Assembly: GCF_019059575.1 (NCBI RefSeq)
Contig: NW_024881615.1
Span: forward strand, 989,756 to 1,053,755
Length of the DNA stretch: 64,000 bases
Source of the DNA: Amphibalanus amphitrite
Taxonomy: Eukaryota > Arthropoda > Thecostraca > Balanomorpha > Balanidae
Direction of reading: 5' to 3'
Shown: positions 9,547 through 59,361 of the stretch, piece after piece
How the letters are laid out: each line of letters begins with the position of its first letter
Position numbering within the stretch: the first letter of the stretch is position 1
Made by a program: the position numbers and the translations under genes
The notes under the pieces: model-generated
Seen by the model: only the letters and a program-made list of their open reading frames with translations
What the model was told of the DNA's origin: nothing
Database searches by the model: none

Positions 9547-9691
9547 ATGTGGGTCCCGCTGCTGCTGCTGCTGCTGGCCGTCGGCGCGCCGGCCGACGCC
9601 AAGAAGAAGGAGGAGGCGGTGATCGAGGAGGTGGGCGCCAAGCAGCTGGAGCAGCTGGTGGAGCAGCACGACTACGTGGCCGTCTTCTGGT
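9547..9691 (+). CDS. Gene 2 exon 1: signal peptide and first strand
   Basis: Encodes a leucine-rich signal peptide followed by [19 protein letters not shown] and the strand YVAVFW. It ends in phase 1 at a GTGAGT donor. The H-exon-like ending shows that domain 1 is assembled as the later domains are. Confidence 0.9.
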
Positions 9692-18600: not shown

Positions 18601-21600
18601 TGAAGCCATATTCCGCTGGAAAATGACTTGTTGAGTGCTCTCATTGTTTCTATCCTCGATTAACCCCGACTCCCACTTTTTTTGCCCGGCAGACGGCCGT
18701 CGCTGTAAGATCGACTGCGACGCTGTGCTGACCGAACTCGAAACGATCGACGATGACACGGACAAGTTCGGAGTGCAGTTTGTCAAAATCAACGACAAGA
18801 AGCTGGCCAAGAAGTACGGCATCTCTGAGTTCCCGGCGCTCACCTACTTCAGGAACAAGGAGCCCATCAAATACGAGGGTACGTACGTGTGTCGATCAAC
18901 TGACTCAGAGGTGCGGCTAGAATAAGTACAGTCGTGCGGTCAGTAACCAGGCAGTTTTCTTTCAGCATTTGCTAATCAATTGATAATCAAGTCAGTCTTA
19001 TCGATTTACGTGATAACGCAATTGATTACCAATCTTTCTTGCCACGCGATGTTTCTCGCGTCACTGTTTATGTGTTTGTACCGATCGCTTCTTAGCTATT
19101 CCAAGATAATGTACCTATGTATTTGTCATCGGGAAAACGTGTGCCTCACGCTCAACATGACCAGTACTTCTCACTTTGCTAATACACTGCTTCTTTTGAG
19201 AAAATTGCTGGCCATTGCTACTTGCTGGTCTTGGTTTGGCTCACTACCTCAACCAGCGTAACTCCAAATTCGGTGGTTTCGGCCCGTGGGGGTTTCAGTT
19301 ACTAACTTAAAAAATAATGCTTCTCGACGGTTTGATTTAACGCTGTCAGTCTTGTGACGTCAGCAAAGACCCTCCAGAGAGCGTAAATAAACGAGGGCAC
19401 CTGTCGACCTGCCGCTGGGCGATGGGCGTCTCTTCCCGCCTGTCGACGCCATCAAACCATTGCCAGTGCCTTCAGCTTACAGAGAGAGTGCCAAGCCCAG
19501 CAAACATGCTTAATTCGACGGAAGCGCGCTGGCATGCGTTGAAGCCATTTCACTCGATCATCAAGGTACTGCAGTGAGAGGGTGTTAGTATGTACACCCA
19601 GTACAATGGCTGCCTGTAGCGCAGTGACTGATCATCAGTTGCGGTCAGAAAACGGCTGCAGTTTCGATCACGAGTGCTCTAAGCCCTTATGGTGGCATGG
19701 ATGGACTGGCCTTACTTTAGGGCTGTTTGGCGGCAGTAGCTGCGACAGTCGGCAGTAGGAAAATCACGTCGAAATGCATGTGTTTATATCGCTTATTTAC
19801 AAAAACGGAGCAATAATTATGAACCCTTACAGAGGCTATTTTTTGACAACCAAAATAAGAAGCGTTATGAAGTCCCTAAGCGTTTGTTTCACAGGCCAGG
19901 CTAGCTTAACTAGATTGATTCTTTTTAAGCGTGGTCTTTATCATTTCTCAATGTCTTCATGATAAAACTTTGTTGGCACGTCACATCCCCTCTTTAGTCT
20001 GACCCAGCTATCCGCGACGTGCGAAACGCTGCTGTCGTGGACGGTATTCGAGCGTCACAAAACGCTCCACTGCTGTTCAGCACCTTGTCGTCGGGACACC
20101 CAACGAGCTTTCTATCCACCTAATGGCAGTCAGCAGTGCATCTATCCGGCTGTCTGTCAGTTCAGCGTTCAGCACTCAGGATGGCCGTTGTCTTGCACCC
20201 AGCTCTCCATGCACCTTACCAATCGTCAGTGTGCTGACAGTCAGCATCCTGACAGTCAGCAGGTGTCAGCACCCAGGTGCTGGTCCGCGGATTCCCTAGG
20301 AAATCCACGGATCCACGGATTTCGCAAACTCACTCTAACATCGGCACCTTCTGGCTGTTCACTGCTCCCGACACCCAGATGTCCGACACCCATTCACTCG
20401 ACCGTCCCCCAATATTAGCCTTATGCCGTCTAATGGTGCTTAGTCGGTGTTTGTCTGTATTTGGAACCACACTCCCTGCTCTGTCGTGCACAGGTGACCT
20501 GATGAACGAGGATGAAGTGCTGGAGTTTCTCACCAGTCTGGACGCCATGGAGCTCCCAGACCAGATCGAGGAGGTCAACGCCAAAATCCTGGATAAAATT
20601 GTCGAGGAACAGCCCTACGTGGCCGTCTTTTTCTGTAAGTCCGTCCAGTTCGACACAGTTTGGGTTTAATGCGAGTGAGTTGGATGACATATGATTTCCA
20701 TTTAGTGATTTATTTTGTGTTTTGTCGCCGTTTTTGGTTATTGGGTTTGTAAATATTGTAGCTTGGTTTTATTCGGCTGAAAGTGTTGCTCTTGGTTCGC
20801 GTTTTGAGAGTTCAATGCACCCTTTATCTCGACTTCGGATGTATATTTGTATGTGAGTTCATTGTGATTGTCCAACATGTGCTGTTTGTCTTGCTTTGCA
20901 AATACGTGGTGTTTACCCCTGTGAAATGGTCATCAAGCACGAATCTGTTCCGTAAACCAAGAACAATCCAGATCGCCTTGAATCCCCTCTCTGCAAAAGG
21001 AGAGTGAAACTTCCGTTTACATATCTGTAATTCAGGCCATTTAGGAGGACGTTTTCGTATTGAGACCGATTTAGGTATTCCGGCGAAGCCCGCGTCGCGC
21101 GGCGGCGGCTGAGTGCGGCCCCCCGTTTTGTGGCCACAGGTCCGTCGGTAGAGAGCTGCCGACTGTCCGAGTGTAAGTAACCGTGCGCCGACCAACGTGC
21201 TCACTTAACGCTCTTCTTTTCGGTTCTTTTATTTCTAGGCGGTGTTTCTACCTATGTGTGGAACTCTTTTAGGGCGTTCGGTGTTTAATTTCGGACCCTC
21301 CAAAGGCTTTTAACAGCTTCTTACCTTCATCCCACGGACCATGTTTCTCGAGCAGCCAATGGCAGCAACTGATCTAGAGGCCCGTGTCTATATCTGCTAG
21401 TTTTCAGACACATGGATGACCCATCTCCACACCACAGTAGCCCCAGTACTGCCCTTCAATGCTCCCCTGTAGCGTAGTAGCCTCGCGACTGCTCTACAAC
21501 TTCCATTACATACTTCGCACGACCACTCATTGCCCACCCGGGCCCTGCTTGAAGAGTGTGGGTGCACATTTACAGGTATATAGCATGGAGCTAGCACTAA

Positions 21601-36042: not shown

Positions 36043-36116
<74 letters not shown>

Positions 36117-36300
36117 TCTCTCTCTCTCTCCCCTCTCTCCCTCTCTCCCTCTCTCCCTCTCTCCCTCTCCCTCCCCCTCCCCCTCCCTCTCCCTCCCTCT
36201 CCCTCTCCCTCTCCCTCTCCCTCTCCCTCTCCCTCTCCCTCTCCCTCTCCCTCTCCCTCTCCCTCTCCCTCTCCCTCTCCCTCTCCCTCTCCCTCTCCCT

Positions 36301-36353
<53 letters not shown>

Positions 36354-39300: not shown

Positions 39301-39437
39301 AATGCTGCCCGCCGCCGGACAGACGGCAAGGCAAGCAGGGGTCAGGCCGACCGAACAGTGTTAGTGCTCCGCCGACTCCGGGCCGCGTGCATGCCTTCTG
39401 TGCCGTGGTCTGCTGGACTCTGCTGCGCCGCCTCTGA

Positions 39438-39469
<32 letters not shown>

Positions 39470-42400
39470 CTCGTGCGTACATGGTGTGCAGTGTCGTCTG
39501 GCGGCCGGCCGCGCCGCACCGGGCTGGCTCAGCGCCAGCGCGCGCGCACGGCGGCGGCGGCGGCCGGCGTCCCCCAGTCAGCCCGCCGCTCACTCCGCTC
39601 ACCCTCGCTCTCTGTCGTTGTGCTCTATCTTCTCTTGGAACTCACACACTCACTTATCTTCTTCGTTCTGTCTATTACTCTCGTCCCTGCTATTTTTTCC
39701 CGTGCACTTTTGTCTCGCTTTGGCCTGTTGTGGGTGTAGGTGTGTGCCTCGAGCGCAGTGAGGAGCCAGGGCGCGGCAGTGCTTTCCTGCATGCGGTCAG
39801 ACGAGGTCTTTCTGTTCTATCTCTCGTTGTGGCGTGATGGTCGCCTTGCGAACGAGGGCGGCCACCTTTTGGATTGGTCTTTGGAAGCGCAGACGGGTCG
39901 CCGCTGGTCTGAGCGACCAGCGTCTGGTTCAAGGCAAACTAATTGGCGCGCTCGACTCTCGGTGCGCACTTTTGGTCCAGTTGGTGGCTGGGATATTTTT
40001 GGACCGGATGCGCAGATTTTCTAGGCAAATTTTCGAGACCTGGCCAGTATAGGCTGGGTGCTCTAGCTGCAGTCTTTGAGGATGGCCTAACACCTTGTCC
40101 GCGTCTCTTCTCATCGTTGTCCGTCGTATTCGTTTGTTCTAACCTGCTGCGATACTCATTTGTTTCAATAGCCAGTGAGTCCCGTTACCTCAGCTGATAT
40201 TCGTTTGCGTGACGTGTTCTATTTCCTTGGTATCCCCTGCAGAATATATCCTGTCGAGGTCTAGTCACTCTAGATGGCTAAATATGAATCCTTTTCCTCC
40301 CAAGACCAGGTGGATGCAGTGCTCCTTCTTAATTCTATTTCAGGTTTGAACGCAGTATTTTATTCTGCAAATTTATTATCATAGCACGTTTTACCCCAGC
40401 CCTTTCCCACATTGTTACCCTTCTTTATTTCATGCCCTCTCTTGCTGTGACTTTTCTTTCTTTTTACCCTTGTACACATTAAAGCGAGGATCATTGTAAA
40501 AGAATTACTTGAAACATAGCAGCAATTTACCCTAATGTAAGAAAATAATGAGTATATCATTCTGCTGCTTTAAATAAGTGTCATTTAAAAACAACTTTTG
40601 CCATTTAGACTATTGTGTTTCGAGCGAACATCTGCTGTTGTGGTGACTATATAAAGCAGCTTTCGAGGCCATGGATCCGACTATGTCTGCGCGGCTCGCC
40701 TGTGTCTGCCCGAGTCGCACGACACCGTTGTGCGACTTCCCTACGGCTATCAGTGGGAGCTGACGCGCGCCGCCGACTCCCGTGGGAGGGCCCAGCTGGT
40801 CACGTGCCGCCCTGCACGTGCCCCTCCCCCCCCCCCCCCCCCCCCCGACACCCCTGATAAGTCCCCCCGCTGCTCCGGTAGGCGAACTCACGGACGAAAA
40901 TTCGGTCCTAGACTGGGCCATCAAAGTGAAAGATGACGACTCCATTGAAGAGATTGATCGCCCTACCCTCTTGTCCCTGATCGACAGCGAGGACTATTTA
41001 GCCGTCTATTTTTGTGAGTTGACCACCTCACTTGACTTGAAGTATATGTTGAGTGTGAACCTTGTCAGCTCTTCAATTGCAAGCTAAAATGATTATTGTT
41101 GTTACAATCTTAAACTAAAGTTAAGTTATTGTATCTTCTCAGAACTCTATTTGGGATGCTCTTTTATTTCATTATTTGCAGTGTTCATGGAGCAAAATAC
41201 AGTAGAACTGATGTTGTATTCTCACTTAATTGCAGACGTAGATAACTCTGAGAGTTCCAGTGTGCTCAAATACATGGAAATGATTGATGACGAGGCAGCC
41301 GAGTACGGAATCCGGTTCGTGAAAATCAACGACAAACTGATGGCCAAGAAGTACGGCTTCCGCGACCCGCCCGGCCTGGCCTACTTCAGGAAGGGAAAGC
41401 ACATCAAGTTTGACGGTAGGTGCTGCTGCCTGCAGACGCTCGGCGCTCACATGACACTGACGCCAGTGTATGGGCATCTGCTTCCGTGTGGCTGCGTGGG
41501 ATCGGGCATGTGCAGCCTTATCGCCTATCATTATCATTTGTTGACGTTATTTCATAATATCCGTTTTTCAACACATTTCGTGAGAATTCAACAAACGGAG
41601 CCTTTGTCTGACTTCATTCAGTTACAGTGGCATTGAATTTAGTGTTTAATTTAGTGACATCATATTGGTAAAAGCAACGCGACGTTGAGCTGTACGTACG
41701 TTTCACATTCCCTGTTGCATAGTTAGGTACTGATAAAATTGTCGCACAGTTCTCGCGTCAAGAGGTGAAATTGGCAACGAAGTATTCTACATAACTTCTT
41801 GCCAGGAATAAATTGTGCGCTTGTCCGCGAAACATAGGCTCTCACCGTTATGTGGTACGTTCTCTTCTTAAACGTTGTACAACTGGGTTTTGTAAACCAC
41901 ACTCGTACCCCGCCACACTTTGCAGGTGATCTTTACGACGAGGAGGAAATTCTCGACTGGCTAACGAACCCCGATAATATGGAGCTCACCGACGCGATCG
42001 AGAAGATCAACCGCAAAATGTTCGCCCGCCTGGTGGAGCGAACCGACCACTATTTCGCCGTGTTCTTCTGTAAGGCCCGAGGGCAGGGATGGACTGTGCG
42101 CAGCCGCAACTCAAAGTTACTCCTATATTTTGCCTAATGGTGTTTTTTATAGCCTATCAGGATTCCTGCTCAACGTATGTTGATATGTGATATCAGTCCA
42201 TCTTCATTTTCTATATTATAACGGAGTAGTAAAATCGGAATTAAATTGAATGGTAAACGAACCATTATAATAGTTTCGCACTGCAAAATTAGATAATGAA
42301 GTGAAACAGCCAAAGCTGTCGTGCGTTTCTCCTGCTGAAGTATCCTGTGTAATTCGCTGTGCTGCGTCAGTGCCCCTCCCGTACTTGACGATTACGCATC

Positions 42401-45400
42401 CGGTCATTGTTTCACCCGTCAGACACCGAGAAGAATTGTAAGCAGTGTGAGAAGGTACTGCAGGAGCTGGAGCACATTGACGACGAGGCGGGCGCGGCCG
42501 GCATCGACTTCGTCAAGATCGACGACATGGAGCTGGCGCGGCAATACGGCGTGTTCGCGCTGCCTGCCGTGGTGCTCTTCCGCGGCGACGAGGCTGACCC
42601 AGTCATCTACGCCGGTAAATATAGTGCCCAGCTTCGATTGCTCGGCTAAGTTATCTTTGGGCTTCACTGAATCATGGTTAAGTTATCCGTGCTTCTTAGA
42701 AAAAGAGACATACCTCATTACTTAACGGTAAGATGACATTAATTATCAGTGTTGATACGATTTTAACGAAAACGGATGGATGTTTTAAACTGAAACAGTC
42801 GTGGCTTAGCTTGCGATCGGTCGCTATCTGATCACTGATCTCTCCCGTCTCTTGCCGCATCTACAGGTGACCTGAAGAACGAGGAGCGGATCCTGGAGTG
42901 GCTGCTGGTCGAGAAGAACCCCGGCTCGGAGGTGATCGAAGAGCTCTCCGGCCAGGAGCTGCAGAAACAGATCGACATCTCAGACGCCATCGCCGTCTAC
43001 TTTTGTGAGTTGCTGGGACTAGCGAGCAGAGAGGGTTGATTTAGAGCGCCATCACATTTTTTCAGGCGGCAGGACTAACGAAATGTGTGCATCGAAGTTT
43101 GATCATTCTTAGAACTGTAAATGGTAATTGTAATTGTAAATAGTAATTGTAAATGGCTTACATCGTAAAATAAAACAACGGAACATCACGAAACAGATCC
43201 ACCCACTAATCCTCGATTTTGCTCTTCCTCGATTATCTACCACTTTCAACACTCAGGTGGGACAGAACAGGGCAAAGTACTTACATGCTTGTATATGCAT
43301 ATGTATATATGTGAATGGTACTGATTTTGTGTCGCCTTTGTGTGTCGGTCATTCATGCTCGCAACTCCATGTTTCCCCGCGCGACACTAGCTGCCTGCTA
43401 GTACGTTTGACTGTGGGTGTTCAAGCTTTCAGTCCATTGTCTAGCTTACAGTGCATGCGCCTTTTAGGGAACGCTTCAGTCTGCGACGGCTGTGACATGC
43501 AGCAGCTGGACAAATATCTAGCGGCTCTGTACAAATCCCCCGCTCCTGCCAAACTCGACCGTAAGGCGGCGCCGGCCGCCGGGCCAGATGACGACCAAAA
43601 CGATGACGATGATGAGGAAACTCCGGACTGTGAGCCGGTAGACGATGATGAAGAGCCAGCTGAAGCGGCCGCTGAAGAGGCTGACGGTAGATGAGCACGC
43701 CTCACCCGAGTCTGACCCAGCCTCAGTTGCACCTGATGCCACCCACTCAGTTGACTTTGCGTTGCCTTTCCTGGGCGGTACCGCGTGAATTGCAGTGTAA
43801 TCCTGCGCGTGGTTCGATTCGGTTGACCTGTCGTTATTTCAGGTATTTCAGGTGTTTGCCTGGCGTAGCTGCTTATTCGCCCCTCATCCCTGTATGCTAC
43901 GAAGTTTTTTTTTTTTTCTCGCCATACCAATACTCTCTTTTCTGCTCTATTTTCAGTCCATTTTACATTCTCATTTGCATATTTTTCGCTGATTATTTTT
44001 GCTACCGATATACACACCTCTTGCAACACCCACTTTATTTTGTGAATTGCTTTACATCTCCGTACTTCTTCAGAAATGATTTGAGCTCATGCACTTTCTT
44101 TTGGTATATTTTTCTGTAAATTGTTGAAGACTTCAGTACACTGATACACACAACCATTATATTTCATTTTACAATCGATCGATCTCTATCAAAAAGTGTT
44201 TTGTGTATATCTGAGACGTTTTCATGTCAATATGTGTGCCTTTATGTAACCCCAGTCTTTGCGCCTGTTCCTCGAGACACCGCCTCACCAGACCAGCCCC
44301 CACTGCTCCGGCCGTACTCCGCTGTACATACATTCACCTCACTGACGGTCCGTTCCCCGCAGACAACGACTCGTGCGCCGACTGCGCCATCATTCTGCAG
44401 GAGCTGGAGAATATTGACGACGACACCGACCGGCACGGCATCAAGTTCGTCAAGACACAGGTGAGTGGTCATAGTCTGCAGAAATGGACCGAACGAATGA
44501 CGTTCTTTAGCTTTATGGCGCTTTAGCCTTTTGTCGTGGTGGGTGCTGCTCCTGGGTTTCCGGTTAGAAAGCATCCGATCATATACCTAATTAAATATTC
44601 AAATGCGTTGATAGGTATCTTCCCCTGTTCTGTGGATGTTTATGGCTAAACTCTCGACTGTGTGCCTTTCCAGGATATGGAGATGGCCAACTCGTTCGGC
44701 GTGACAGAGTTCCCCGCACTTATCTACTTCGAGAAACAAACGCCTAGCGTCTTCGAAGGTAAGCTGAAGCCTGCCTCTACAGTTCTATGCTATTAAAGAT
44801 CCATATAGAAATGTGACATCCATTAAAGCCTTCCAAGTTGAGCTGGCTTCAACGGATTTAATTCTTATGCGGTTCTACCTAGGCACCGCCTACCACATTA
44901 CATGACTCTCGCCTCACCGTGACCCCACCCCGACCGAGGTCTGTCCCGTCTTTAACCTCTCCGACCCTGTCCGACAGGCGACCTCCGAGCCGAGGAGGAC
45001 GTGCTCCAGTGGCTGGTCCTGCAGAAGACCGAGGACAGGATCGAGACCGTGAACCGGGGCGTGCTGGAGCAGATGTTGGAGGACACCCAGTACCTCGCCG
45101 TCTTCTTCTGTAAGTACTGTAAAGTCAGGTAGATAGTTTGCGCTTTGATTCGATGGTGTTCACTGCCAAGAATCGATATTCTACCCTTCTACCCGTATAT
45201 TTACATAGTTTGTTACGTTTCCACTTTCTTTACTGCTCCTCAGACAAGCCGAACTGCAAGGCGTGCGACGTGGCGCTGTCTGAGCTGGAGACGATTGACG
45301 ACGAGTGCGACCTCTACGGCATCCACATGGTCAAGATCCAGGACCCGCAGCTGGCCAAGCGCTACGGCATCAAGACTCTGCCGGCGCTAGTCTATTTCCG

Positions 45401-48400
45401 GAACGGAAACCCGCTCATCTACGAGGGTGAGCCGCCGGGGCTAGCATGATGAACTCGGAACACACGTGTCTTGAAGGGTCATTCAATGCCGTCGCGGTGA
45501 AGTATTTGCATTTTATTAAGGAACAATGATTTACTGAAGTTCAATCATAGTGTAGAGTGTAGTGTATGAGACGTCATATTCATTACTCAAGGGATGTACG
45601 TGATGTTTTGTACGTCTTGATGTCTTTTGTGCTAATGTACTAATGTTTTACGCTCTTTTTTGTGATAACTTGATATTTTTCGTCAATGAACGTTTAATAA
45701 TGTTTTATGACTCAATTAAAATTGATCTCTTTCTGTTCGTTTTTAGTGAATAGCTTTACTGTTTTGTTTTTCTTTGTAATGTTCTGTTCTCCTCATGTCC
45801 GCTTCTTTCCTTTCGTGCGTCCACTTCTTTCCTGTGTCGTCCTGTTTCATCAGCACTGGGCGCCGCCGTGATCTCGTTCTACTTTTGGTTGTATCGTCGA
45901 CATACAGTTGCTGTACGTTGTTGGCTCGTCTTTCCAGCTGCCATTTCGTCGTCGATTCTCGGCTCTCAGCTTAAACAGAAAGGATGCTGTTGGACCATCG
46001 ATTTCATCAACAGAGTTATGACTTCAGTCGTCTGTCGCTGCCGGCTACTTTTTTTCGCAGGCTGCAATTATAGCTTGTTTACCGAATGGAAAAGTGTTTT
46101 GCTGGTCTCCATTTTTATTTCCATTGAGGCTCCTTAGCTGACATGCAGAATGACGCATTATGTTTGGGGCCCTTTCGCCTTAATATGCTCGAGTAAAGCT
46201 TCTGACATTTTTGCGGAGACAATAATTGCATTATTCGATGTGTGGTTTTCATAAAACGTGTCGCAATTTTGAATAAACTAGTTTTGTAACAGGTGGCCTT
46301 CTTACCGCATTCTGATGCCTTCCTTCCTCTTTACTGCGGTTACCTGGCTTAGCTGTTTCAACACTATTTTGTTCTCTCACTGCGTCTTTCGGAGGGCATC
46401 CTTACTCTTAGAGATCGCACCAGCTTTGGAGTCCGTTCCAGCTGCTGCAGAGGGATTTGAAGACTTCTTTTCCCTTCACCATATTGGTGGGAAGCTGCAC
46501 CATCTTTCTAGGATGTCGGCTGCTGCCTGCTGGTCTGGTCGGCATCGGCTTCCTCATGCAAATGCCAAGACATTAGGAACATACATGCGCTATGCTTGCC
46601 GTCCCAAAGCAAGTTTCGCTTGCGTTTTGGTCTTTTAAATCGCACATAACTCTGCCTGTTTATTTCTTTTTACACTTACTTTCGATTAATTCAACCTCCT
46701 CGGTTTGCTTTGGTTTGTTGCATGCGTTAACCACTCAGTTGAGATTTGCATTCGCTTGTTTTGTTTGCATTTTTTGGTATTGCATCATAAGCATGCTGGC
46801 ATAAGTGACGATTTTAAGTTATGCTCGAAATACATGATTCACGTCTGTGCTGTTAGGCGAAATTTAAAGTATGATGTTTGGTGCTGTTCGCCTCTTGATG
46901 TTATTGCCACGTAGAGCTTTCTTTCGGCTGAGCTTGGGCTGAGTGAACTACTTTCATATTATTCAGTTCGATAAGGTGATAGTTAAGTGTTGCTGGGTAC
47001 CATTAGATGCTTCAAATCTAAGATAGGAATAAAGTATTAGGTTTTATTGATAAAGTTTTGTCGCATAATCATGTGGCGTGGATACTCGCTATGATATGTT
47101 TCACTTTTATTTCAAACTCTTGATGATTAATAAGCTTATCCCGTATGTCTTACATAGTCGGAAATATAAGCCCATATACCTAGGTAAAGGTTAATATATC
47201 AGCGACGGTACGCATTTAAAGTTATTCTTTGGCGACGTATTCATTTTATTTTTAATTATTGTAATTTTGAGATTAACTAATGCAACAGTTGACACTAATT
47301 TGCATTCGCATACGAGCTTTCCAGCATACCTTTTATTACAGATACATAATGTTCATTTGAATATCGCTGTAAATAAACAGTATCGCTGTAATAGTATCGC
47401 ATAAATATCGCTGTAAATAGTATCAGTTTTGCTTTGAAACGTTTCCTTAAATAATTTTGAAGAGAACATCATATCGGCTGCATTGCTTGCTCGTTTAGAA
47501 TAGTGTATGCTACGCACATTCGCCAATGTAAATCTTTTATGATGCTTGCTCAGACATCAACATGCACACACACATTTTTAATTCATTGCATTGTTGATGA
47601 TTCTTTTATTATCCATGCATTTGTGTCCGAAAACTTCGCACGGACATAGCGAGAAGACACTACGAATGTCACACCAGCTAAATTCCGATCGCCATATGCT
47701 GCAGATTATACAGGGTGCTGCAGGTACTACCGGCGGCTGGTGCCGGGTTGTCCCGGACGGGTCGGTGAGCTCGTGCCTGTGGTGACCGCTGGCGCCGCCC
47801 GGCCCGCAGGCGACCTCCGCTCGGCCGACCAGCTGATGGAGTGGCTCTTTGACGAGGACAGCCGAGAGCTGTTCGGAGAGATTGAGACCGTTAACCGGGC
47901 CATGCTCGAGCGTCTGATGGAGGTGTCGCCGTTTCTGTGCGCGCTGTTTTGTGAGTGCGCCGCAGCCGTGGCGCGTCGGTGTCGTGCTGTGGTGGCGTCC
48001 TCTGCTGGTGACTGGTGACCCTGGCGACCCGCTGCACCGGCCGGACCGCGAACGGGGCCGGTCGGCGCACACCTCCGGACCCACCGTGCGCCGCTCCCGC
48101 CCTCTCACCCTACGGCGTGCTCTCTCTGTGCTCTCTATCCGCACCTTAGCCGGTCTAACACCCGCTCCGACCTGACCTGACCTGACCTGAACTCTGGACC
48201 TCACCAGTCGAGCTCAGCCGGACCCGAGTCTGCGGCGCTCTCCACTAGGTGGCAGTGAAGTCGGACTTGACATAGACTACTGCCCTTTCGTCTGAGACGA
48301 ATTTACTCATCTGTGACTAAACATTGGCCTAGTTATCGACAGGCCTGCCACCTAGTGTGTGTGGGCCGCACTTCCCTTCTCCCCCGGTGAACGTCAACTG

Positions 48401-51400
48401 GTCCATGAAAGGCACTGTCAGTCACCGGGCTCGCACGGATATTTACTAAATAATATCGATATTCGATACACTTTCTAACCACTTTCTCATTACATCTGTC
48501 CGTCAAACCACAGTCCACCGTTCCGTGCTTCTATCCTCAGGATACTGAAATCCTTCTCCACGCCGCAACCCTCCTCCGGGCTGGACAGGCAACTTTATCT
48601 CATGCGGGCTGCTCCCTTGGAGCGGCACCGCTGCTCCTGAGGGAGTGCACCACGTAGCCGGGTGCAGTGAGTGCCTTGGGGCTGGGTGGCCTGTCCTCTG
48701 GACGGGCTTAGCCCCGGCGACTCACTAGGGTGCCTGCCCAGACCAATGTCTCCCCCTATATCCTATCATCCTCCCGGCTCTGAAATGGTCTCATTGGACC
48801 GAAAGGGCCTAACCCAACAAAACAAACAAAAAACCACAGACCATTCTGCACGAGTTCGGTGTCTGTTCAGTGCCATCCAGCGGACGGCGGCGGTCCCGGG
48901 TGGGTGGTCCGGCGGGGCCGCGGCTGGTTCCCTTGCCCTCCCCTGTGGGGAGACCGCGCTCGGTCGGACTCTGTGTGCATGTGGCCGCTGCCGGCGACCG
49001 GCAGGAGACCCTCGGAACGCCGCCGGTGTGCTCGAGTGGCTGCTGGATGACGAGAACCGAGAGCTGGTCGGCGAGATCGAGGAGATCAACGCGCGCATGC
49101 TGGAGCGCCTGCTGGACGAGTCGCCGTTCGTGGCCGTCTTCTTCTGTGAGTGGTCTCCGGGGGACTGGGGAGTAGGAGGAGGCGCGGGCGGCGAGTGGTG
49201 CAGGCGGGTGGATAGGGGAGGGCAGGGATAGAGGTGTGCGCATTGCCGGCTGTTTTTATGTGATGCATGTAGTTTATAAGTTTCTGGCTAATTTTCCCGG
49301 GGATGGCTATTTCGTCTGAATTGTCGACGTCAGCGTTGGAACCTTTGGTAATTTTTGATAGCGTATAATTTCCTTGTATTGGACTACCATTCCTAGGCTC
49401 CCGAATAGGCGGGCATGTTTTGCTAGCAAAACGTCACCATTACGTCACCAAAAGTGAGCTTAGTGCCTACTTACTATGTAGTATGCATAGTTGTTTCTTG
49501 TACGGGGATCTATATCAATTTGTGGGGCTGACTACTTCATGTAGCGTGCTTCTCGTATGTCATTGGGCTTTTCGTGCGGCTACGGGGAATAGCAAATAGC
49601 GGATTTCGGTTGCTTAGCAGAAAGCCAAATAGTTACGACTCGGGCTGCATTACAATCACTACCGCAGTTAGGCGCGAACGAATCCGATATTAGCCTCAAG
49701 CCTGTTTGCCATCGCTTTGGCAGGCCATATAGTGTAAGCTCGATTGATGCATATGTAGGTATGTGTGCTGTATAGTGTATGAAGGGCGCCAGTGAACTTT
49801 TAGATAGCAGCTTATGGATAGCGGATTATTTGCTGCTAGGATCCAGCGTTATATGCTTATACAACGCTACATTTGTGCATTGCAGCCGGCGGAAAGGACC
49901 TCTGTAAGTTGACCGCACTGACCCACGTGACCCACAGACACACCCTGTAGGTCTGTGCCTGTGGCCCGACCTCTCCGCCACTAAGCGCTTCAGTACAACG
50001 CCTGGGCACAGTCACTGTTAGATGCTTGTCTTTGTGTTTGCCACTGCCCTGCTTTTACTGTTACTCTGATCGTTCGCGAGTCAGTCAGTGGGAATGGCTT
50101 AGTTCGGAGGAATTAACGTACCGTCTCTGTGTTATATGTCGGGCGCTGTCCGCTCACCCTCCCTCTCCCGTCCATTTGGTACTCGGTAGTTTTGTTTAGT
50201 TAGTGACGGATGGTCCAAGTACGGTACTACTATCTACTAATGAGATCAACGCATTCGCATGACGTTGAGTTTAGGTATATCTTAGTTTCCGACATGTATA
50301 TTTGTAGACTGAAGTAACTTATCAAAATCATGCGCTTATCAGGCGCCTCTCGCCAGTGTCCTCACTAGCGGTTTATAACTGTGTTTATTGTTTATTGTGA
50401 ATACCCACTTAATTATTTCATGGTAAACCATTTCGTACTCGAGTTAGCTTGGTGAATGATGATTTAGTTTCCATTCCAGTCTAATCTAACGTAAAATATC
50501 ATCTCACCTACCTAAGCTCCCATTCATTCGTGATTTTTTTTTGCGCATCTCAGTCGACTGATGATGACATGGTTTGGGTTTGTGAATTTACTTTACAGAT
50601 CACCTGAATCTTCCCAAAGACCGGTCATTGGACGGATCTTGATAGATACAATCATTTTTGTCAATGCTCTGAACCCCCGTTACCGCGTTTGCAGGCTCTT
50701 TGGTGACACCTCTGTCCGTGACCTGCCCTGACCCCTACCCTGACCTCTGCCCCGTGGTGACAGATGACGAGGAGTGTAGTGACTGCGGAGCCATCCTGGA
50801 GGAGCTTGAGAACATCGACGACGAGGCTGACATGTATGGTGAGTGACGGTGGGCGCTGCTAGACCCACGCTTTGGGTCACTACAGGCCGGTCACGCGATC
50901 ACGGGATCACGGGTCGTGAACTTGCAGCCGCCAGGGTCGGGCGTAGACAGCACTGGCAATGTTGCGAGGGTATTTAACCAGGAGAGGAGAGGGATCATGC
51001 ATCATTGGAAGTTTTATCAAGCGAACACGTCTTGAGCGTTCATTACTGGAACTTGCATAGTCAAAGATTCTACTTAGCTTGCAATATTGTTTGCAGAGTA
51101 CTTAAACGACGACGCTCGGAGTGCTGTGCATCTGACCAGCTTCTTTGTCCCGGTTCCCACCAGGCATTGACTTTGTGAAGATCAGTGACGAGGAGGCAGC
51201 CCAGAAGTACCACATCTTACACACGCCGGCGCTCGTCTACTTCAGGAAGAGGATCCCCATCATCTATGAAGGTAGGGGCGGTTGATGAGAGAAGCGAGGA
51301 CATAAGCAGCACACGAAGTTATGGGTGGCTGCTTGGGCCGCTAGTGGCTTCGCTAATTTTAGCTCGTTCAACTCTGGAGCTCTTCAATAAATCATCGATG

Positions 51401-52494
51401 TGGGGTCGTCCGGCAACTGTGACTGTTGTACATACTCAGGCATTATAATAACCGTGTCTGTTGCCCACAAGTGTCATATTTACCATGTTTCTTGTCTACT
51501 GACGTCAGTCGTCACGTTGTACTGTGTTTGTTGTTGGTAGTTACGATGTTGACGTTTGTTTATTTTCCCGCAGGTGACATGACCGACGACGAGAAGGTGC
51601 TCTCGTGGCTGACCTCTCAGGACGTGTTGGAGATCAAAGACGAAATCGAGGAGGTCAACCGCAAGATGCTGGACAAACTGCTCGACGAGAACGACTTCGT
51701 CGCCGTCTACTTCTGTACGTTACACCACTTAGCTTGTCATCATTTATGATGTGTTGATACTTTAGACGAGAGCGAATATTGTTCTGTGCGAGTTGTAGGT
51801 TGTGTGGGCTGCCAAGACGATTTCCCGAAAATTTGCCACCAGTGGAACAAATAGCCCATTTTGCCGCCGTTGTACGGGACTGCTGACTGACGAGTGACGG
51901 TGCGTTCGTCTCTGATAACTAACTCTCATCGCTCTCAGATGAGAACGACTGTCCGCGCTGTGACGAGGTTCTCACCGAGCTGGAGACCATCGACGACGAG
52001 GCCGACAACCTCGACATCACCTTCGTCAAGATCAGAGACACTCGCTACGCCAAAAAGTACGGCATCAGCAAGCTGCCGGCCATGGTGTATTTCAGAAGGC
52101 GCTTCCCCAGCATCTACAGAGGTCAGTTCGCAAAGTAACTAGATGCGTTATAAATACCTCCCAAAAGGAATTACCATGACAAATGTGAGGCAATGATGTG
52201 CGCATTGGCTCTATGTACGATACGATAGGGAAAGGGGGCCATGCTTAATTTGCTTATTTTTCAGTCAATATTTATCGATTATCACCCGGCCAAGGGCGGC
52301 AGTTAACGACCGATGTTCCCGCAGGCGACCTGCTGAACGAGACGGAGGTACTCGACTGGCTGCAGAAGAACCGCTACAAGCACCCGGAGCTCAACCTGTT
52401 CATGTACGCCATCGGCGCCGTGTCAGTGGCCTTTGTCGGCTACACCACGTTCCTGGTGTTCTGTTTCCATGGCAACCAGCAGAAGGCGGCGTGA
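9547..52494 (+). CDS. Gene 2: giant multi-thioredoxin-like ER membrane protein (calsequestrin/PDI-like)
   Basis: Joined exons: 9547-9691, 18693-18878, 20494-20634, 24902-25084, 25358-25501, 27639-27821, 28494-28625, 28874-29056, 29371-29502, 32130-32312, 32818-32949, 34447-34629, 34864-34995, 36451-36642, 36864-37007, 37234-37413, 37654-37794, 37936-38118, 40882-41013, 41236-41415, 41926-42069, 42423-42614, 42867-43004, 44363-44460, 44674-44758, 44978-45109, 45244-45426, one of 47810-47950 or 49005-49145, 50764-50838, 51164-51271, 51574-51714, 51939-52121 and 52325-52494. The sum is 5001 nt, 1666 aa. The product has a signal peptide ([18 protein letters not shown]), 15 thioredoxin-like domains and a C-terminal membrane segment with a short tail ending NQQKAA. 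Each domain combines the end of an H exon (helices plus a strand such as YVAVFF) with a T exon (active-site region, ENIDDE helix, FVKI strand, cis-Pro segment LPTLVYF). Seven domains keep CxxC. Arrayed acidic thioredoxin folds recall calsequestrin and PDI proteins. A lumenal role in ER redox, chaperoning or calcium binding is inference. Confidence 0.9.
11572..11736. repeat. 33-bp minisatellite
   Basis: Five consecutive 33-bp units share the core GGTCGGTGGGCGGCGGC and GATGCGGTG. The ends alternate between GCT and GTA, giving a 66-bp higher-order period. Degenerate copies extend left to about 11400. Confidence 0.85.
14701..15130. repeat. 26-27-bp minisatellite carrying TGCCACGT
   Basis: About 16 degenerate units with a core such as CACGCCGGTGCCACGTATC and CTTGGAG. 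Three units near 14995-15080 are almost identical. TGCCACGT occurs about ten times within 300 bases. Confidence 0.85.
17080..17460. repeat. Degenerate GAGAGCC(GA) tandem tract
   Basis: Irregular purine-rich repeats of GAGAGCCGA, GAGACGA and GAGCTGA over about 380 bases in intron 1. No coding signal. Confidence 0.75.
18693..18878 (+). CDS. Gene 2 T1 exon
   Basis: 62 codons. Encodes GRRCKIDC, a CxxxC in place of CxxC, then [17 protein letters not shown], the cis-Pro segment EFPALTYF and KYEG. Acceptor GGCAG, donor GTACGT. Confidence 0.9.
18879..20493 (+). other. Gene 2 intron 2
   Basis: A 1.6 kb intron. Bases 19611-19680 show possible RNA polymerase III A and B boxes (TAGCGCAGTGA and AGTTTCGATCA), so a tRNA-derived SINE fragment is possible. 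Nothing else recognised. Confidence 0.6.
20494..20634 (+). CDS. Gene 2 H1 exon
   Basis: 47 codons. Encodes [16 protein letters not shown], a helix [17 protein letters not shown] and the strand YVAVFF. Acceptor CACAG, donor GTAAGT. Confidence 0.92.
20635..24901 (+). other. Gene 2 intron 3 (4.3 kb)
   Basis: Contains GC-rich islands at 22560-22910 (CCGCCG-type simple repeat near 22700 and a duplicated GACGGCGACCCGGTG) and 23760-24420. A possible minus-strand SINE B box (GGTTCGATCC) lies near 21838. No gene supported. Confidence 0.6.
24902..25084 (+). CDS. Gene 2 T2 exon (CRKC)
   Basis: 61 codons with a CRKC active-site-like motif, [17 protein letters not shown], cis-Pro SLPTLVYY and IVYDG. A GTAAGT inside the codons for CRKC is not used as a donor in this model. 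Confidence 0.9.
25358..25501 (+). CDS. Gene 2 H2 exon
   Basis: 48 codons. Encodes [16 protein letters not shown], an acidic run [10 protein letters not shown], a helix and the strand YLAVLF. Donor GTGAGT. Confidence 0.92.
25502..27638 (+). other. Gene 2 intron 5
   Basis: A 2.1 kb intron with CpG-rich stretches at 25860-26240 and 26930-27200. The second includes TATA-like motifs (GTATACT, GTATATTC), but no exon or promoter can be assigned. Confidence 0.6.
27639..27821 (+). CDS. Gene 2 T3 exon (Cys-less site)
   Basis: 61 codons. The CxxC position is replaced by acidic [11 protein letters not shown]. The DDECD cysteine is present after ELENI, as is cis-Pro EFPTLVYF. Confidence 0.92.
27822..28493 (+). 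other. Gene 2 intron 6
   Basis: 672 bases. The 3' third has several ATGACCT/GTGACCTGA copies resembling the start of the following H exon. Nothing else recognised. Confidence 0.65.
28494..28625 (+). CDS. Gene 2 H3 exon
   Basis: 44 codons. Encodes [31 protein letters not shown] and the strand HVAVLF. Acceptor CCCAG, donor GTGAGT. Confidence 0.92.
28874..29056 (+). CDS. Gene 2 T4 exon (Cys-less site)
   Basis: 61 codons. [11 protein letters not shown] replaces the CxxC region. Has [18 protein letters not shown] and cis-Pro ETPTLVYF. Donor GTGCGT. Confidence 0.92.
29371..29502 (+). CDS. Gene 2 H4 exon
   Basis: 44 codons. Encodes [31 protein letters not shown] and the strand HLAALF. Donor GTACGT. 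Confidence 0.92.
29503..32129 (+). other. Gene 2 intron 9
   Basis: A 2.6 kb intron. A candidate 30-nt micro-exon lies at 31191-31220, preceded by a long CTGT-rich pyrimidine tract. The rest is unremarkable. Confidence 0.6.
31191..31220 (+). CDS. Candidate micro-exon (10 codons)
   Basis: TTTCCAG acceptor and GTAAGT donor enclose 30 bases in symmetric phase 1-1. They encode EHDDVTVLF, closely like the strand ends of H exons (for example HVAVLF) and of exon 1 (EQHDYVAVF). It could be a cassette exon or the remnant of a lost H exon. It is left out of the main model. Confidence 0.4.
32130..32312 (+). CDS. Gene 2 T5 exon (Cys-less site)
   Basis: 61 codons. [11 protein letters not shown] replaces CxxC. 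Has [18 protein letters not shown] and cis-Pro QLPTLVYF. Closely related to T4 and T6. Confidence 0.92.
32313..32817 (+). other. Gene 2 intron 10
   Basis: 505 bases. Its 3' end repeats TGACCTGA motifs like the next exon's start. Nothing else recognised. Confidence 0.65.
32818..32949 (+). CDS. Gene 2 H5 exon
   Basis: 44 codons. Encodes [31 protein letters not shown] and the strand YVAAVF. Donor GTGAGT. Confidence 0.92.
32950..34446 (+). other. Gene 2 intron 11
   Basis: A 1.5 kb AT-rich intron. No feature recognised. Confidence 0.65.
34447..34629 (+). CDS. Gene 2 T6 exon (Cys-less site)
   Basis: 61 codons. [11 protein letters not shown] replaces CxxC. Has [18 protein letters not shown] and cis-Pro ELPTLVYF. 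Donor GTCAGT. Confidence 0.92.
34864..34995 (+). CDS. Gene 2 H6 exon
   Basis: 44 codons. Encodes [29 protein letters not shown] and the strand YVAVYY. It ends in A, not T, so the junction codon with T7 is Ser instead of Tyr. Confidence 0.9.
34996..36450 (+). other. Gene 2 intron 13 with CT-rich microsatellite
   Basis: A 1.45 kb intron. AT-rich in its first kilobase, then a CT/CCCTCT microsatellite at about 36041-36352 ending 100 bases before the T7 acceptor. Confidence 0.8.
36041..36352. repeat. (CT)n / (CCCTCT)n microsatellite
   Basis: About 310 bases of pure pyrimidine: CT dinucleotides, then CCCTCT hexamers in long uninterrupted runs, then CT again. Confidence 0.97.
36451..36642 (+). CDS. 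Gene 2 T7 exon (CKKGDQC)
   Basis: 64 codons. The site reads [10 protein letters not shown], with two cysteines separated by five residues. Then [18 protein letters not shown] and cis-Pro KFPALVLY, ending AYPG. Confidence 0.88.
36864..37007 (+). CDS. Gene 2 H7 exon
   Basis: 48 codons. Encodes [33 protein letters not shown] and the strand DVVAFF. Confidence 0.9.
37234..37413 (+). CDS. Gene 2 T8 exon (Cys-less site)
   Basis: 60 codons. [11 protein letters not shown] replaces CxxC. Has [18 protein letters not shown] and RPAIVFF with the proline kept. Ends VVYKG. Confidence 0.9.
37654..37794 (+). CDS. Gene 2 H8 exon
   Basis: 47 codons. Encodes [30 protein letters not shown] and the strand YLVVFF. 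Confidence 0.9.
37936..38118 (+). CDS. Gene 2 T9 exon (CKNC)
   Basis: 61 codons with [22 protein letters not shown] and cis-Pro TFPTVVYF, ending IVYNG. Confidence 0.92.
38839..38889 (+). CDS. Partial H-like exon (17 codons), optional
   Basis: A TAG acceptor and a GTAAGC donor bound 51 bases in phase 1-1. They encode [16 protein letters not shown], the first third of an H module. The second half (IEEV...VAVFF) is absent. Including it keeps the frame. It may be a cassette or a decaying duplicate of H9. Confidence 0.45.
39437..39471. repeat. (CCG)n microsatellite
   Basis: About eleven consecutive CCG units in intronic sequence. Confidence 0.9.
40882..41013 (+). CDS. Gene 2 H9 exon
   Basis: 44 codons. 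Encodes [30 protein letters not shown] and the strand YLAVYF. Acceptor GGTAG is weak, with a C-homopolymer upstream; donor GTGAGT. Confidence 0.85.
41236..41415 (+). CDS. Gene 2 T10 exon (Cys-less site)
   Basis: 60 codons. [11 protein letters not shown] replaces CxxC. Has [16 protein letters not shown] and DPPGLAYF with the proline kept. Ends IKFDG; donor GTAGGT. Confidence 0.88.
41416..41925 (+). other. Gene 2 intron 20
   Basis: 510 bases, AT-rich in the second half. Nothing recognised. Confidence 0.65.
41926..42069 (+). CDS. Gene 2 H10 exon
   Basis: 48 codons. Encodes [33 protein letters not shown] and the strand YFAVFF. Donor GTAAGG. Confidence 0.9.
42070..42422 (+). other. Gene 2 intron 21
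   Basis: 353 bases, AT-rich. Nothing recognised. Confidence 0.65.
42423..42614 (+). CDS. Gene 2 T11 exon (CKQC)
   Basis: 64 codons with [22 protein letters not shown] and ALPAVVLF, ending VIYAG. A short insertion (GDEAD) lengthens the last hairpin. Confidence 0.92.
42867..43004 (+). CDS. Gene 2 H11 exon
   Basis: 46 codons. Encodes [30 protein letters not shown] and the strand IAVYF. Donor GTGAGT. Confidence 0.9.
43005..44362 (+). other. Gene 2 intron 23 region
   Basis: 1.36 kb between H11 and T12 containing an alternative CDGC/acidic exon (43468-43686). The remainder is T-rich and shows nothing else. Confidence 0.65.
43468..43686 (+). CDS. Alternative T-like exon with CDGC and acidic tail
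   Basis: A TTTTAG acceptor follows H11 in phase 1. The exon encodes [17 protein letters not shown], then a proline/alanine linker and acidic runs ([21 protein letters not shown]). It can end at a GTAGAT donor in phase 1 (73 codons, frame kept) or read through two codons to TGA at 43692-43694. It has a thioredoxin-like CxxC but lacks the usual strand and cis-Pro. It is a cassette, an alternative to T12, or a terminal exon giving a soluble acidic isoform. Confidence 0.55.
44363..44460 (+). CDS. Gene 2 T12 exon, part a (CADC)
   Basis: First half of T12. Encodes [22 protein letters not shown] and the strand KFVKTQ. Ends in phase 0 at GTGAGT, the only non-phase-1 junction in the gene, consistent with later intron gain. 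Confidence 0.9.
44674..44758 (+). CDS. Gene 2 T12 exon, part b
   Basis: Second half of T12. Encodes [19 protein letters not shown] with the cis-Pro, ending SVFEG. The two parts together give 183 nt, the standard T length. Confidence 0.9.
44978..45109 (+). CDS. Gene 2 H12 exon
   Basis: 44 codons. Encodes [30 protein letters not shown] and the strand YLAVFF. Confidence 0.92.
45244..45426 (+). CDS. Gene 2 T13 exon (CKAC)
   Basis: 61 codons with [22 protein letters not shown] and cis-Pro TLPALVYF, ending LIYEG. It has both the CxxC and the DDEC cysteine. Confidence 0.92.
45427..47809 (+). other. Gene 2 intron before H13a
   Basis: A 2.4 kb AT-rich intron. Open frames near 45870-46640 lack splice or family support. 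Nothing recognised. Confidence 0.65.
47810..47950 (+). CDS. Gene 2 H13a exon (alternative)
   Basis: 47 codons. Encodes [33 protein letters not shown] and the strand FLCALF. Acceptor CGCAG, donor GTGAGT. It is a second H exon with no T exon between it and H13b, so the two are probably mutually exclusive. Confidence 0.85.
47951..49004 (+). other. Spacer between H13a and H13b
   Basis: 1.05 kb containing four adjacent CCTGA units near 48172-48190. No T exon is present. Confidence 0.65.
49005..49145 (+). CDS. Gene 2 H13b exon (alternative)
   Basis: 47 codons. Encodes [34 protein letters not shown] and the strand FVAVFF. Acceptor GGCAG, donor GTGAGT. Same length and clear homology to H13a. Confidence 0.85.
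49146..50763 (+). other. Gene 2 intron before T14
   Basis: A 1.6 kb intron with a candidate 18-nt micro-exon at 49886-49903. CCTGACC-type repeats lie in the last 60 bases before the acceptor. Confidence 0.6.
49886..49903 (+). CDS. Candidate micro-exon (6 codons)
   Basis: CATTGCAG acceptor and GTAAGT donor bound 18 bases in symmetric phase 1-1, encoding GGKDL plus junction codons. Inclusion would insert SGGKDL between the strand and the CSDC site of domain 14, recalling the SGPCKK start of T7. Confidence 0.35.
50764..50838 (+). CDS. Gene 2 T14 exon, part a (CSDC)
   Basis: Encodes [17 protein letters not shown] and DDEADMY, ending in phase 1 at GTGAGT. T14 is split by an intron at a different position from T12. 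Confidence 0.9.
50839..51163 (+). other. Gene 2 intron within T14
   Basis: 325 bases. Nothing recognised. Confidence 0.7.
51164..51271 (+). CDS. Gene 2 T14 exon, part b
   Basis: Encodes [16 protein letters not shown], cis-Pro HTPALVYF and IIYEG. Parts a and b sum to 183 nt. Confidence 0.9.
51272..51573 (+). other. Gene 2 intron before H14
   Basis: 302 bases. Nothing recognised. Confidence 0.65.
51574..51714 (+). CDS. Gene 2 H14 exon
   Basis: 47 codons. Encodes [32 protein letters not shown] and the strand FVAVYF. Confidence 0.92.
51939..52121 (+). CDS. Gene 2 T15 exon (CPRC)
   Basis: 61 codons with [22 protein letters not shown] and cis-Pro KLPAMVYF, ending SIYRG. Donor GTCAGT. Confidence 0.92.
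52325..52494 (+). CDS. Gene 2 terminal exon: membrane anchor
   Basis: Begins like an H exon ([15 protein letters not shown]), then continues into a membrane segment ([24 protein letters not shown]) and a short tail HGNQQKAA before TGA. This predicts a type I orientation with the domains in the lumen. The lysine is at -3, but a full dilysine signal is not present. Confidence 0.9.
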
Positions 52495-58496: not shown

Positions 58497-59084
58497 GTAT
58501 GTATGAATTGTTTTTGCAATAGATGGTTGTAGTGTTTTGTTTTGTCGCTGGTGTGTCACGTTCAGTTTAATGCATCACGTTCAGACACTACAGTGGTCCA
58601 GTCCAGTGTACATTTTGCACACTCAAGCTGGGCATGCTGAAAATAATTCGCTGGAGCTCCTTCAGTGTGATCTCATGAAGTTGCCTGGCACAACTTTGGA
58701 ACTTTGCGAGCTCACATGACTCATCCCCAGTTTTGTCCTGACACAGCCCAATCTAATCCTTTTTCAAGATACAGGCATTGTCTAATGTTTTCAAAACAAT
58801 TCATTCTAATCTAAATGCAGAAACTTCTTCACTAATGCATGTGTAATTTGTACCTACATTTTCCAGACTGCTGAGTCTGAGGCATTGTACATTATTTTCA
58901 CATCATGTGCCGAAATGTAGTACCTATCAGTGCCCTGCGCCAACTCATCAGGTCCATGTCTTGTCTTGTTCGCCTTGTTACATCCGCCTACCTCTCCTCC
59001 ATCATTTCTTCCTTCCATCTTTCCTTGCTTCCTTCCTCACTCCCTCTCCTCTCGTCTCCTCGTCTCCTCTCCTCTCTCCCCTCC

Positions 59085-59268
<184 letters not shown>

Positions 59269-59361
59269 TTACTCTTTCCCTCCTTCTCTCATATTCTTCT
59301 CCTCCATTTTCTCCCACGCAATGTTAAGTGTACCTATAATTTGGTTATGAACATTTTGCAG

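What the first reader, a model, noticed from the sequence alone, without database searches (positions are those of the whole stretch)
9547..52494. 15-domain thioredoxin-like membrane protein with a two-exon phase-1 code
Each domain is split at the same place into an H exon (132-144 nt) and a T exon (180-192 nt), all phase 1. The joined frame closes at 5001 nt. Such a long regular array anchored in a membrane is unlike ordinary PDIs, which have two to four domains. It may act as a lumenal scaffold, redox relay or calcium buffer.
Basis: partly seen in the sequence, partly recalled or inferred. Interest (0 to 1): 0.75.

Follow-up and report, generated by a model that had tools for sequence, protein, structure and literature searches.

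The report
Giant acidic thioredoxin-repeat membrane protein
An animal gene encodes a chain of fifteen thioredoxin-fold domains, very rich in acidic residues and apparently tied to a membrane at one end; it may be a relative of a little-studied fruit-fly muscle gene and could be a calcium store used where calsequestrin is missing.

Summary
The gene is real. My own rebuild gives 33 exons at 9547-52494 (+), 5001 nt with stop, 1666 aa: signal peptide, 15 thioredoxin-fold domains, one hydrophobic helix, 8-residue tail. All 32 introns are GT-AG; 31 are phase 1, one phase 0. A second genomic copy, probably the other haplotype, keeps all exons and splice sites, with 48 synonymous and 2 amino-acid-changing differences.

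Corrections: T12 and T14 carry an extra intron; H exons hold the last helix of the previous domain; two alternative H14 exons exist; a helix-only exon (Hx) could end the protein after domain 9.

Seven of 15 domains keep CxxC at the PDI position; D3-D6, D8, D10 have none, and D3-D6 are the most acidic. D+E is 24.2%. Ryanodine receptor is found, calsequestrin is not, but that search type also missed this gene. From recall, untested: the fly relative is l(2)01289/hulk, in print as striated-muscle specific.

Best reading: a membrane-tethered lumenal ER/SR protein with an acidic calcium-buffering block and a thiol-bearing block. Function is inferred.

The parts
9547..9691 (+). Exon H1: start codon, signal peptide (by eye), beta1-alpha1-beta3 of D1
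18693..18878 (+). Exon T1 (D1; CKIDC, CxxxC)
20494..20634 (+). Exon H2
24902..25084 (+). Exon T2 (D2; CRKC)
25358..25501 (+). Exon H3
27639..27821 (+). Exon T3 (D3; no CxxC, acidic)
28494..28625 (+). Exon H4
28874..29056 (+). Exon T4 (D4; no CxxC, acidic)
29371..29502 (+). Exon H5
32130..32312 (+). Exon T5 (D5; no CxxC, acidic)
32818..32949 (+). Exon H6
34447..34629 (+). Exon T6 (D6; no CxxC, acidic)
34864..34995 (+). Exon H7 (only H exon ending in A, not T)
36451..36642 (+). Exon T7 (D7; Cx5C; starts GC, with H7 gives Ser)
36864..37007 (+). Exon H8
37234..37413 (+). Exon T8 (D8; no CxxC)
37654..37794 (+). Exon H9
37936..38118 (+). Exon T9 (D9; CKNC)
38839..38889 (+). Exon Hx: closing helix only; candidate alternative end after D9
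39220..39437 (+). Candidate alternative last exon X39 up to its stop codon (72-residue tail counting the junction Ser); no H/T profile hit there
   Evidence: same-length frame in the second copy with 1 residue changed
40882..41013 (+). Exon H10
41236..41415 (+). Exon T10 (D10; no CxxC)
41926..42069 (+). Exon H11
42423..42614 (+). Exon T11 (D11; CKQC)
42867..43004 (+). Exon H12
44363..44460 (+). Exon T12a (D12; CADC), followed by the only phase 0 intron
44674..44758 (+). Exon T12b
44978..45109 (+). Exon H13
45244..45426 (+). Exon T13 (D13; CKAC)
47810..47950 (+). Exon H14a, alternative to H14b
   Evidence: dN 0.354, dS 0.816 to H14b
49005..49145 (+). Exon H14b, alternative to H14a; starts GA, so H14a joined to H14b gives TGA; acceptor tract weak by eye
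50764..50838 (+). Exon T14a (D14; CSDC)
51164..51271 (+). Exon T14b
51574..51714 (+). Exon H15
51939..52121 (+). Exon T15 (D15; CPRC)
52325..52494 (+). Last exon: closing helix of D15, transmembrane segment (best 19-mer: residues 1640-1658), 8-residue tail, stop

Best explanation
A single type I membrane protein of the ER or sarcoplasmic reticulum. Shown from sequence: signal peptide (by eye), 15 thioredoxin-fold domains in tandem, one C-terminal hydrophobic segment long enough to span a membrane, an 8-residue tail, strong acidity, strong purifying selection. Inferred: the chain lies in the lumen; domains D3-D6, duplicated from one another and without CxxC, form an acidic block that binds many calcium ions weakly, as calsequestrin (three acidic thioredoxin-fold domains; recalled) does; the membrane-near domains D11-D15, all with CxxC at the PDI active-site position, form or exchange disulfides; the anchor holds the store at a membrane site such as the calcium-release junction. 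Further inferred: splicing to Hx/X39 would give an unanchored nine-domain form that keeps the acidic block and drops the D11-D15 block. In this animal it would do in muscle part of what calsequestrin does elsewhere.
For: Architecture. Constraint: 48 synonymous vs 2 nonsynonymous differences over 1055 and 3943 sites, a ratio near 0.011. Acidity: net -241 over 1666 aa; D+E 24.2% against 13.1-16.8% in the longest open frames of two PDI-type genes of the same genome, each in two copies, with some non-exon residues and, for one gene, only part of the protein. D3-D6 net -32, -25, -22, -23 per H+T unit against -4 to -19 for the other 11. D3-D6 form one clade, support 96/97. Calsequestrin family: no match over cut-off, 2 sub-threshold matches that lie in a PDI gene and its second copy, while ryanodine receptor gives 12 matches over cut-off. 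In print: no calsequestrin found in insects (passages of PMC7582152); fly l(2)01289/hulk is striated-muscle specific (passage of PMC8331185).
Against: No calcium-binding, localisation or expression data for this gene. The calsequestrin absence is weak: the same exon-by-exon family search with PF00085 listed 65 matches and 0 of them on the two contigs of this gene, so a split family can be missed; none of the 14 control genomes rings for PF01216. D8 and D10 also lack CxxC but are only -8 and -9, so loss of CxxC and acidity do not always go together. Seven of 15 domains keep CxxC, which plain calsequestrin does not need (recalled). Pfam PF01216 is not among the 20 families listed for the whole protein. 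A passage of PMC5362240 calls CG9432 a protein disulfide isomerase, associated with lipid droplets and affecting their size in fat body and S2 cells, which does not fit a muscle-only store. Orthology to hulk is recalled, not tested.
Confidence: 0.4

Rival explanations
1. A multi-domain oxidoreductase or chaperone of the PDI kind: CxxC domains oxidise or shuffle client disulfides, domains without CxxC hold clients, and acidity is just typical of lumenal proteins.
For: CxxC sits exactly at the PDI active-site position (alignment) in 7 of 15 domains; nearest solved relatives are PDIs; a passage of PMC5362240 calls the fly gene a PDI; an Hsp70 gene ending in REEL, so perhaps ER-type, lies next door.
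Against: None of the seven dipeptides is GH: they are RK, KN, KQ, AD, KA, SD, PR. Six of 15 domains have no cysteine pair there. Acidity is beyond the two PDI-type genes compared. No KDEL-type end; C-terminal anchor instead.
Confidence: 0.3
2. Mainly a structural spacer or lumenal scaffold: a long chain that sets the width of a cisterna or tethers release-channel partners; calcium binding and redox are side effects.
For: Long regular array of similar units with a membrane anchor.
Against: Does not explain the acidic D3-D6 block or the retained CxxC sites; no partner known.
Confidence: 0.18
3. The model is wrong: two or more shorter genes, for example a nine-domain gene ending at X39 and a second gene starting later.
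For: Hx/X39 gives a possible end after D9 (1055 aa). I did not search for a second start exon between D9 and D15.
Against: One frame runs through 33 exons; all exons and splice sites are kept in a second copy; H7/T7 differ together from the rest (A and GC, Ser instead of Tyr), as expected if they are spliced to each other.
Confidence: 0.07

Closest known systems
Drosophila l(2)01289 = CG9432 = hulk (recalled as the likely ortholog)
   Same: In print as having a thioredoxin-like domain (PMC2777252 table) and as striated-muscle specific (PMC8331185 passage).
   Different: No fly sequence was available to compare; domain number, anchor and exon pattern not checked here. Printed roles seen in passages: GS-element insertions there modify amyloid toxicity, and lipid-droplet association and size.
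Calsequestrin (CASQ1/2)
   Same: Tandem thioredoxin folds and strong acidity (recalled); in print as an abundant SR protein with high capacity and low affinity for calcium (start of the abstract of PMC7582152).
   Different: Here 15 domains, a membrane anchor, CxxC in 7 of 15; Pfam PF01216 not matched.
Protein disulfide isomerases (P4HB, PDIA4, ERp44)
   Same: Best solved-structure relatives; CxxC position and the proline before beta4 shared in the alignment.
   Different: Ordinary PDIs have few domains and mostly CGHC (recalled; two own-genome examples); this one has 15 domains and none with CGHC.
TXNDC16 (ERp90)
   Same: Multi-thioredoxin ER protein (recalled); PF24508 matches 2 of 16 rows at E<=0.01 and the whole protein at 2.4e-29.
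   Different: No single stretch passes on its own for PF24508; domain number differs (recalled).

Membership tests
Thioredoxin-fold superfamily | Profile match to thioredoxin domain | tested here: met
   PF00085 220.5 bits for the protein, 8 stretches on their own; PF00085 in 10 and PF13098 in 11 of 16 rows at E<=0.01
Thioredoxin-fold superfamily | Conserved proline before beta4 (cis-Pro; label recalled) | tested here: met
   Invariant P94 in 16 of 16 rows, D14 counted twice
PDI family (active) | CxxC at the active site | tested here: inconclusive
   7 of 15 domains CxxC, 1 CxxxC, 1 Cx5C, 6 none
PDI family (active) | Thiol-disulfide exchange activity | not testable with these tools
   Needs protein
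PDI family (active) | KDEL-type retention signal | tested here: not met
   Ends in a hydrophobic segment plus HGNQQKAA; read by eye
Calsequestrin | Match to Pfam PF01216 | tested here: not met
   PF01216 not listed for the 1666 aa protein at E<=0.01; not filed as calsequestrin
Calsequestrin | Tandem thioredoxin folds with high acidity (recalled) | tested here: met
   15 domains; net -241, D+E 24.2%
Calsequestrin | High-capacity calcium binding and polymerisation | not testable with these tools
   Needs protein
l(2)01289/hulk orthologs | Sequence and exon orthology to fly CG9432 | not tested
   No animal collection on hand; link is recalled. Only printed facts:
l(2)01289/hulk orthologs | Striated-muscle expression | not testable with these tools
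   No transcript data for this genome

The most novel reading that the evidence does not exclude
This family is the missing high-capacity calcium store of muscle in animals that lack calsequestrin: an independently built, membrane-anchored, 15-domain acidic thioredoxin chain that joins a calcium sink (D3-D6) and a thiol-bearing block (D11-D15) in one molecule, with alternative splicing that can release the sink from the anchor (Hx/X39) and swap the helix/strand piece between D13 and D14 (H14a/H14b).
Probability: 0.27. Interest if true: 0.78.

Novelty: new member of a known kind. Interest (0 to 1): 0.5.

Why it matters
PMC7582152 reports no calsequestrin in insects and says that arthropods may not require high-capacity calcium stores (passages; its discussion says Arthropoda lack the gene, while its results report one in a spider). 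A very acidic tandem-thioredoxin protein, with a possible fly relative that is muscle specific, in a genome with ryanodine receptor and no calsequestrin hit over cut-off, makes the opposite idea directly testable: the store is there but built from another gene. It also offers a clean case of exon-module expansion, with phase 1 introns on both sides of nearly every module.

Tried and rejected
Calsequestrin membership: rejected on PF01216. Separate shorter genes: judged unlikely. H14a and H14b both included: rejected, makes an internal stop. That TGA depends on H14b starting GA; GGA is 8 of 69 Gly codons in the gene, so it may be chance. A missing second half of H for Hx between 38890 and 40881: no + strand H hit there at E<=10; one minus-strand 10-position match at 40196-40258, E 6.4. 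Extra conservation of Hx/X39 between the two copies: weak; Hx 1 change in 51, X39 region 2 in 201, but neighbouring non-exon stretches are also low (1 in 139, 5 in 330, 4 in 280; then 8 in 301 and 35 in 881), so it does not prove an exon. H14a/H14b cannot be judged from the two copies, which are nearly identical there. RNA fold around H14b: ordinary, z 0.93. Relatives in viral contigs: 16 pattern matches, none confirmed; in genome contigs: 143 pattern matches, none confirmed; neither collection is meant to hold animals, so this says little.

Paper searches: the three papers on CG9432 came, and PMC7582152. Searches found 0 papers; one search listed 4, one search listed 30 of 5571 (noise from article numbers), 15 of 23, 7, 5, 12 of 38; apart from the papers named here I saw only these listings and opened none of them except PMC3654919 (irrelevant). 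A first exon join had two wrong ends (T12a, T14a) and was corrected.

No structure was predicted: the stated rule accepts proteins read in one frame of the DNA, and a spliced domain is not one, so I did not send any.

Full report
WHAT IS THERE. The window lies in an 808 Mb genome of 2644 contigs. Seeded profile searches of all six-frame ORFs show H and T exons in order on the + strand from 9592 to 52389. With exact GT-AG sites the corrected model has 33 exons from 9547 to 52494, 5001 nt with one stop, 1666 aa. All 32 introns are GT-AG; 31 are phase 1 and one (T12a/T12b) is phase 0; introns run from 134 to 9001 nt in the H14b form. Junctions fit one another: 15 of 16 H exons end in T and 14 of 15 T exons (first pieces) start AC or AT, giving Tyr; H7 ends in A and T7 starts GC, together giving Ser.

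Two of 15 T units are split by an extra intron. Comparing the alignment with PDI, the H exon carries the last helix of domain n-1 followed by beta1-alpha1-beta3 of domain n, and the T exon starts just at the active-site loop. That is why the last exon starts with a '[13 protein letters not shown]' helix before the membrane segment, and why H1 has none. The secondary-structure labels are read from the PDI alignment and the known fold, not predicted by a tool.

IS IT REAL. The same gene lies on contig C418: all 34 exons (both H14 counted) are present with the same lengths and splice sites. Over 5001 nt there are 48 synonymous and 2 nonsynonymous differences (V856F, E908D), with 1055 synonymous and 3943 nonsynonymous sites; ratio about 0.011. 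In 23660-43140 aligned exon bases are 98.5% identical (3213 bases) and other bases 94.1% (15,999). I take C418 as the other haplotype because ryanodine receptor and PDI genes also occur as contig pairs; a recent duplication is not excluded. A search with exon T9 listed 30 matches, all on C118 and C418 within this gene, so no paralog was seen at E<=0.01.

DOMAINS. 16 rows (15 domains, D14 twice with either H14) have 54% mean column identity and 11 invariant columns, including the proline before beta4. Pfam: PF00085 220.5 bits in the whole protein; 10 of 16 rows match PF00085 and 11 of 16 PF13098 at E<=0.01. PDB profile search: best hits are PDIs (1.1e-11). CxxC: D2, D9, D11, D12, D13, D14, D15 (7 of 15). 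D1 has CxxxC, D7 Cx5C; D3, D4, D5, D6, D8, D10 have none. The D9 cysteines align with the PDI CGHC. D3-D6 are a supported clade (96/97); 10 of 12 inner branches are left open, so the rest of the order is unresolved.

CHARGE. Net -241 over the protein, computed pI 4.18. D+E 24.2%, net -0.145 per residue. Own-genome comparison: 13.1-16.8% and -0.026 to 0.0 per residue (six rows, but only two PDI-type genes in two copies each; longest open frames, so some non-exon residues, and for one gene only part of the protein). Per H+T unit the net is -32, -25, -22, -23 for D3-D6 and -4 to -19 for the other 11. D8 and D10 have no CxxC but are only -8 and -9.

MEMBRANE. The 19-residue windows with mean hydropathy above 1.6 are the six starting at 1635-1640 and no others, maximum 2.0 at 1640. 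The signal peptide was judged by eye. The tail is HGNQQKAA, 8 residues.

ALTERNATIVE EXONS. H14a and H14b lie between T13 and T14a with no T hit between them; both have GT-AG sites and intact frames, though by eye the H14b acceptor has a weak pyrimidine tract; dN 0.354, dS 0.816. Either alone keeps 5001 nt; both together create an internal stop, TGA at their junction. Hx (51 nt) encodes only the closing helix of D9, just as the last exon does for D15, and its donor can join an acceptor at 39220 to give a 72-residue tail and a 1055 aa protein; the frame has the same length in the second copy with one residue changed. Neither alternative is shown to be used.

CALSEQUESTRIN. Own-genome search for PF01216: no match over cut-off; two at E about 0.006, which lie in a PDI gene and its second copy. 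Ryanodine receptor PF02026: 12 matches over cut-off on two contigs. This absence is weak evidence: the genome search works exon by exon, and the same search with PF00085 listed 65 matches of which 0 lie on C118 or C418, so it missed the present gene. The 14 control genomes are prokaryotes; none rings for PF01216, so they are no positive control.

LITERATURE SEEN. PMC2777252: passages and one table; 7 GS elements at Lethal (2) 01289, CG9432, 'Thioredoxin-like domain', in a table of modifiers of amyloid toxicity, whose passage speaks of suppressors. PMC8331185: passages; l(2)01289 named hulk, striated-muscle specific. PMC5362240: passage; CG9432 called a PDI, with association to and effect on lipid droplets. 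PMC7582152: passages; no calsequestrin in insects, one in a spider, and a discussion line saying Arthropoda lack it. PMC3654919: one passage, irrelevant. That CG9432 is the ortholog of this gene is my recall. I saw no paper that proposes this gene as a calsequestrin substitute; that rests, mostly listings, within an open-access library only.

HOW IT LIKELY WORKS. Shown: architecture, acidity, absence of CxxC in the D3-D6 block, constraint. Inferred: lumenal position, weak high-capacity calcium binding by D3-D6, thiol chemistry by D11-D15, placement by the anchor, release of the sink by Hx/X39. The PDI-type rival keeps 0.3, the scaffold rival 0.18.

VERDICT. Real, conserved between two copies, probably a member of a known but barely studied family; the calcium-store reading is attractive and testable, not proved. 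The species was not established.

Noticed in passing
window 54286-55962, - strand: Hsp70 gene (PF00012, 725 bits) ending in REEL, so perhaps an ER-type Hsp70, tail to tail with the thioredoxin array about 1.8 kb away.
   Followed up: partly
window 35-5506, - strand: Tandem copies of a small acidic protein (ADETPTEFDALLAELEAALNAFLD and similar), about 1.1-1.2 kb apart; no Pfam match at E<=0.01 for the three ORFs scanned; pieces match the fetched part of the second contig at 75-81%.
   Followed up: partly
window 47810-47950 and 49005-49145: Two alternative H14 exons; double inclusion gives TGA at the junction because H14b starts GA, unlike the other 14 internal H exons, which start GT or GC.
   Followed up: partly
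window 38839-38889 and 39220-39437: Helix-only exon and possible alternative tail with a cysteine-bearing stretch ([19 protein letters not shown]).
   Followed up: partly
G000 contig C418:285001-345000 (L011-L016): Second copy of the region: 99.4-99.7% identical over window 9.0-23.7 kb and 43.1-62.2 kb, but 83-96% in the pieces between and about 95-96% over 4.8-8.2 kb, as if a stretch of the two copies had a different history.
   Followed up: no
G000: The PF00085 whole-genome search listed 65 matches but none of this gene's exons: split thioredoxin domains can escape exon-by-exon family searches.
   Followed up: yes
window 36036-36393 and 59036-59315: Long CT-rich simple repeats that give spurious Leu-Ser-Pro ORFs.
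   Followed up: no
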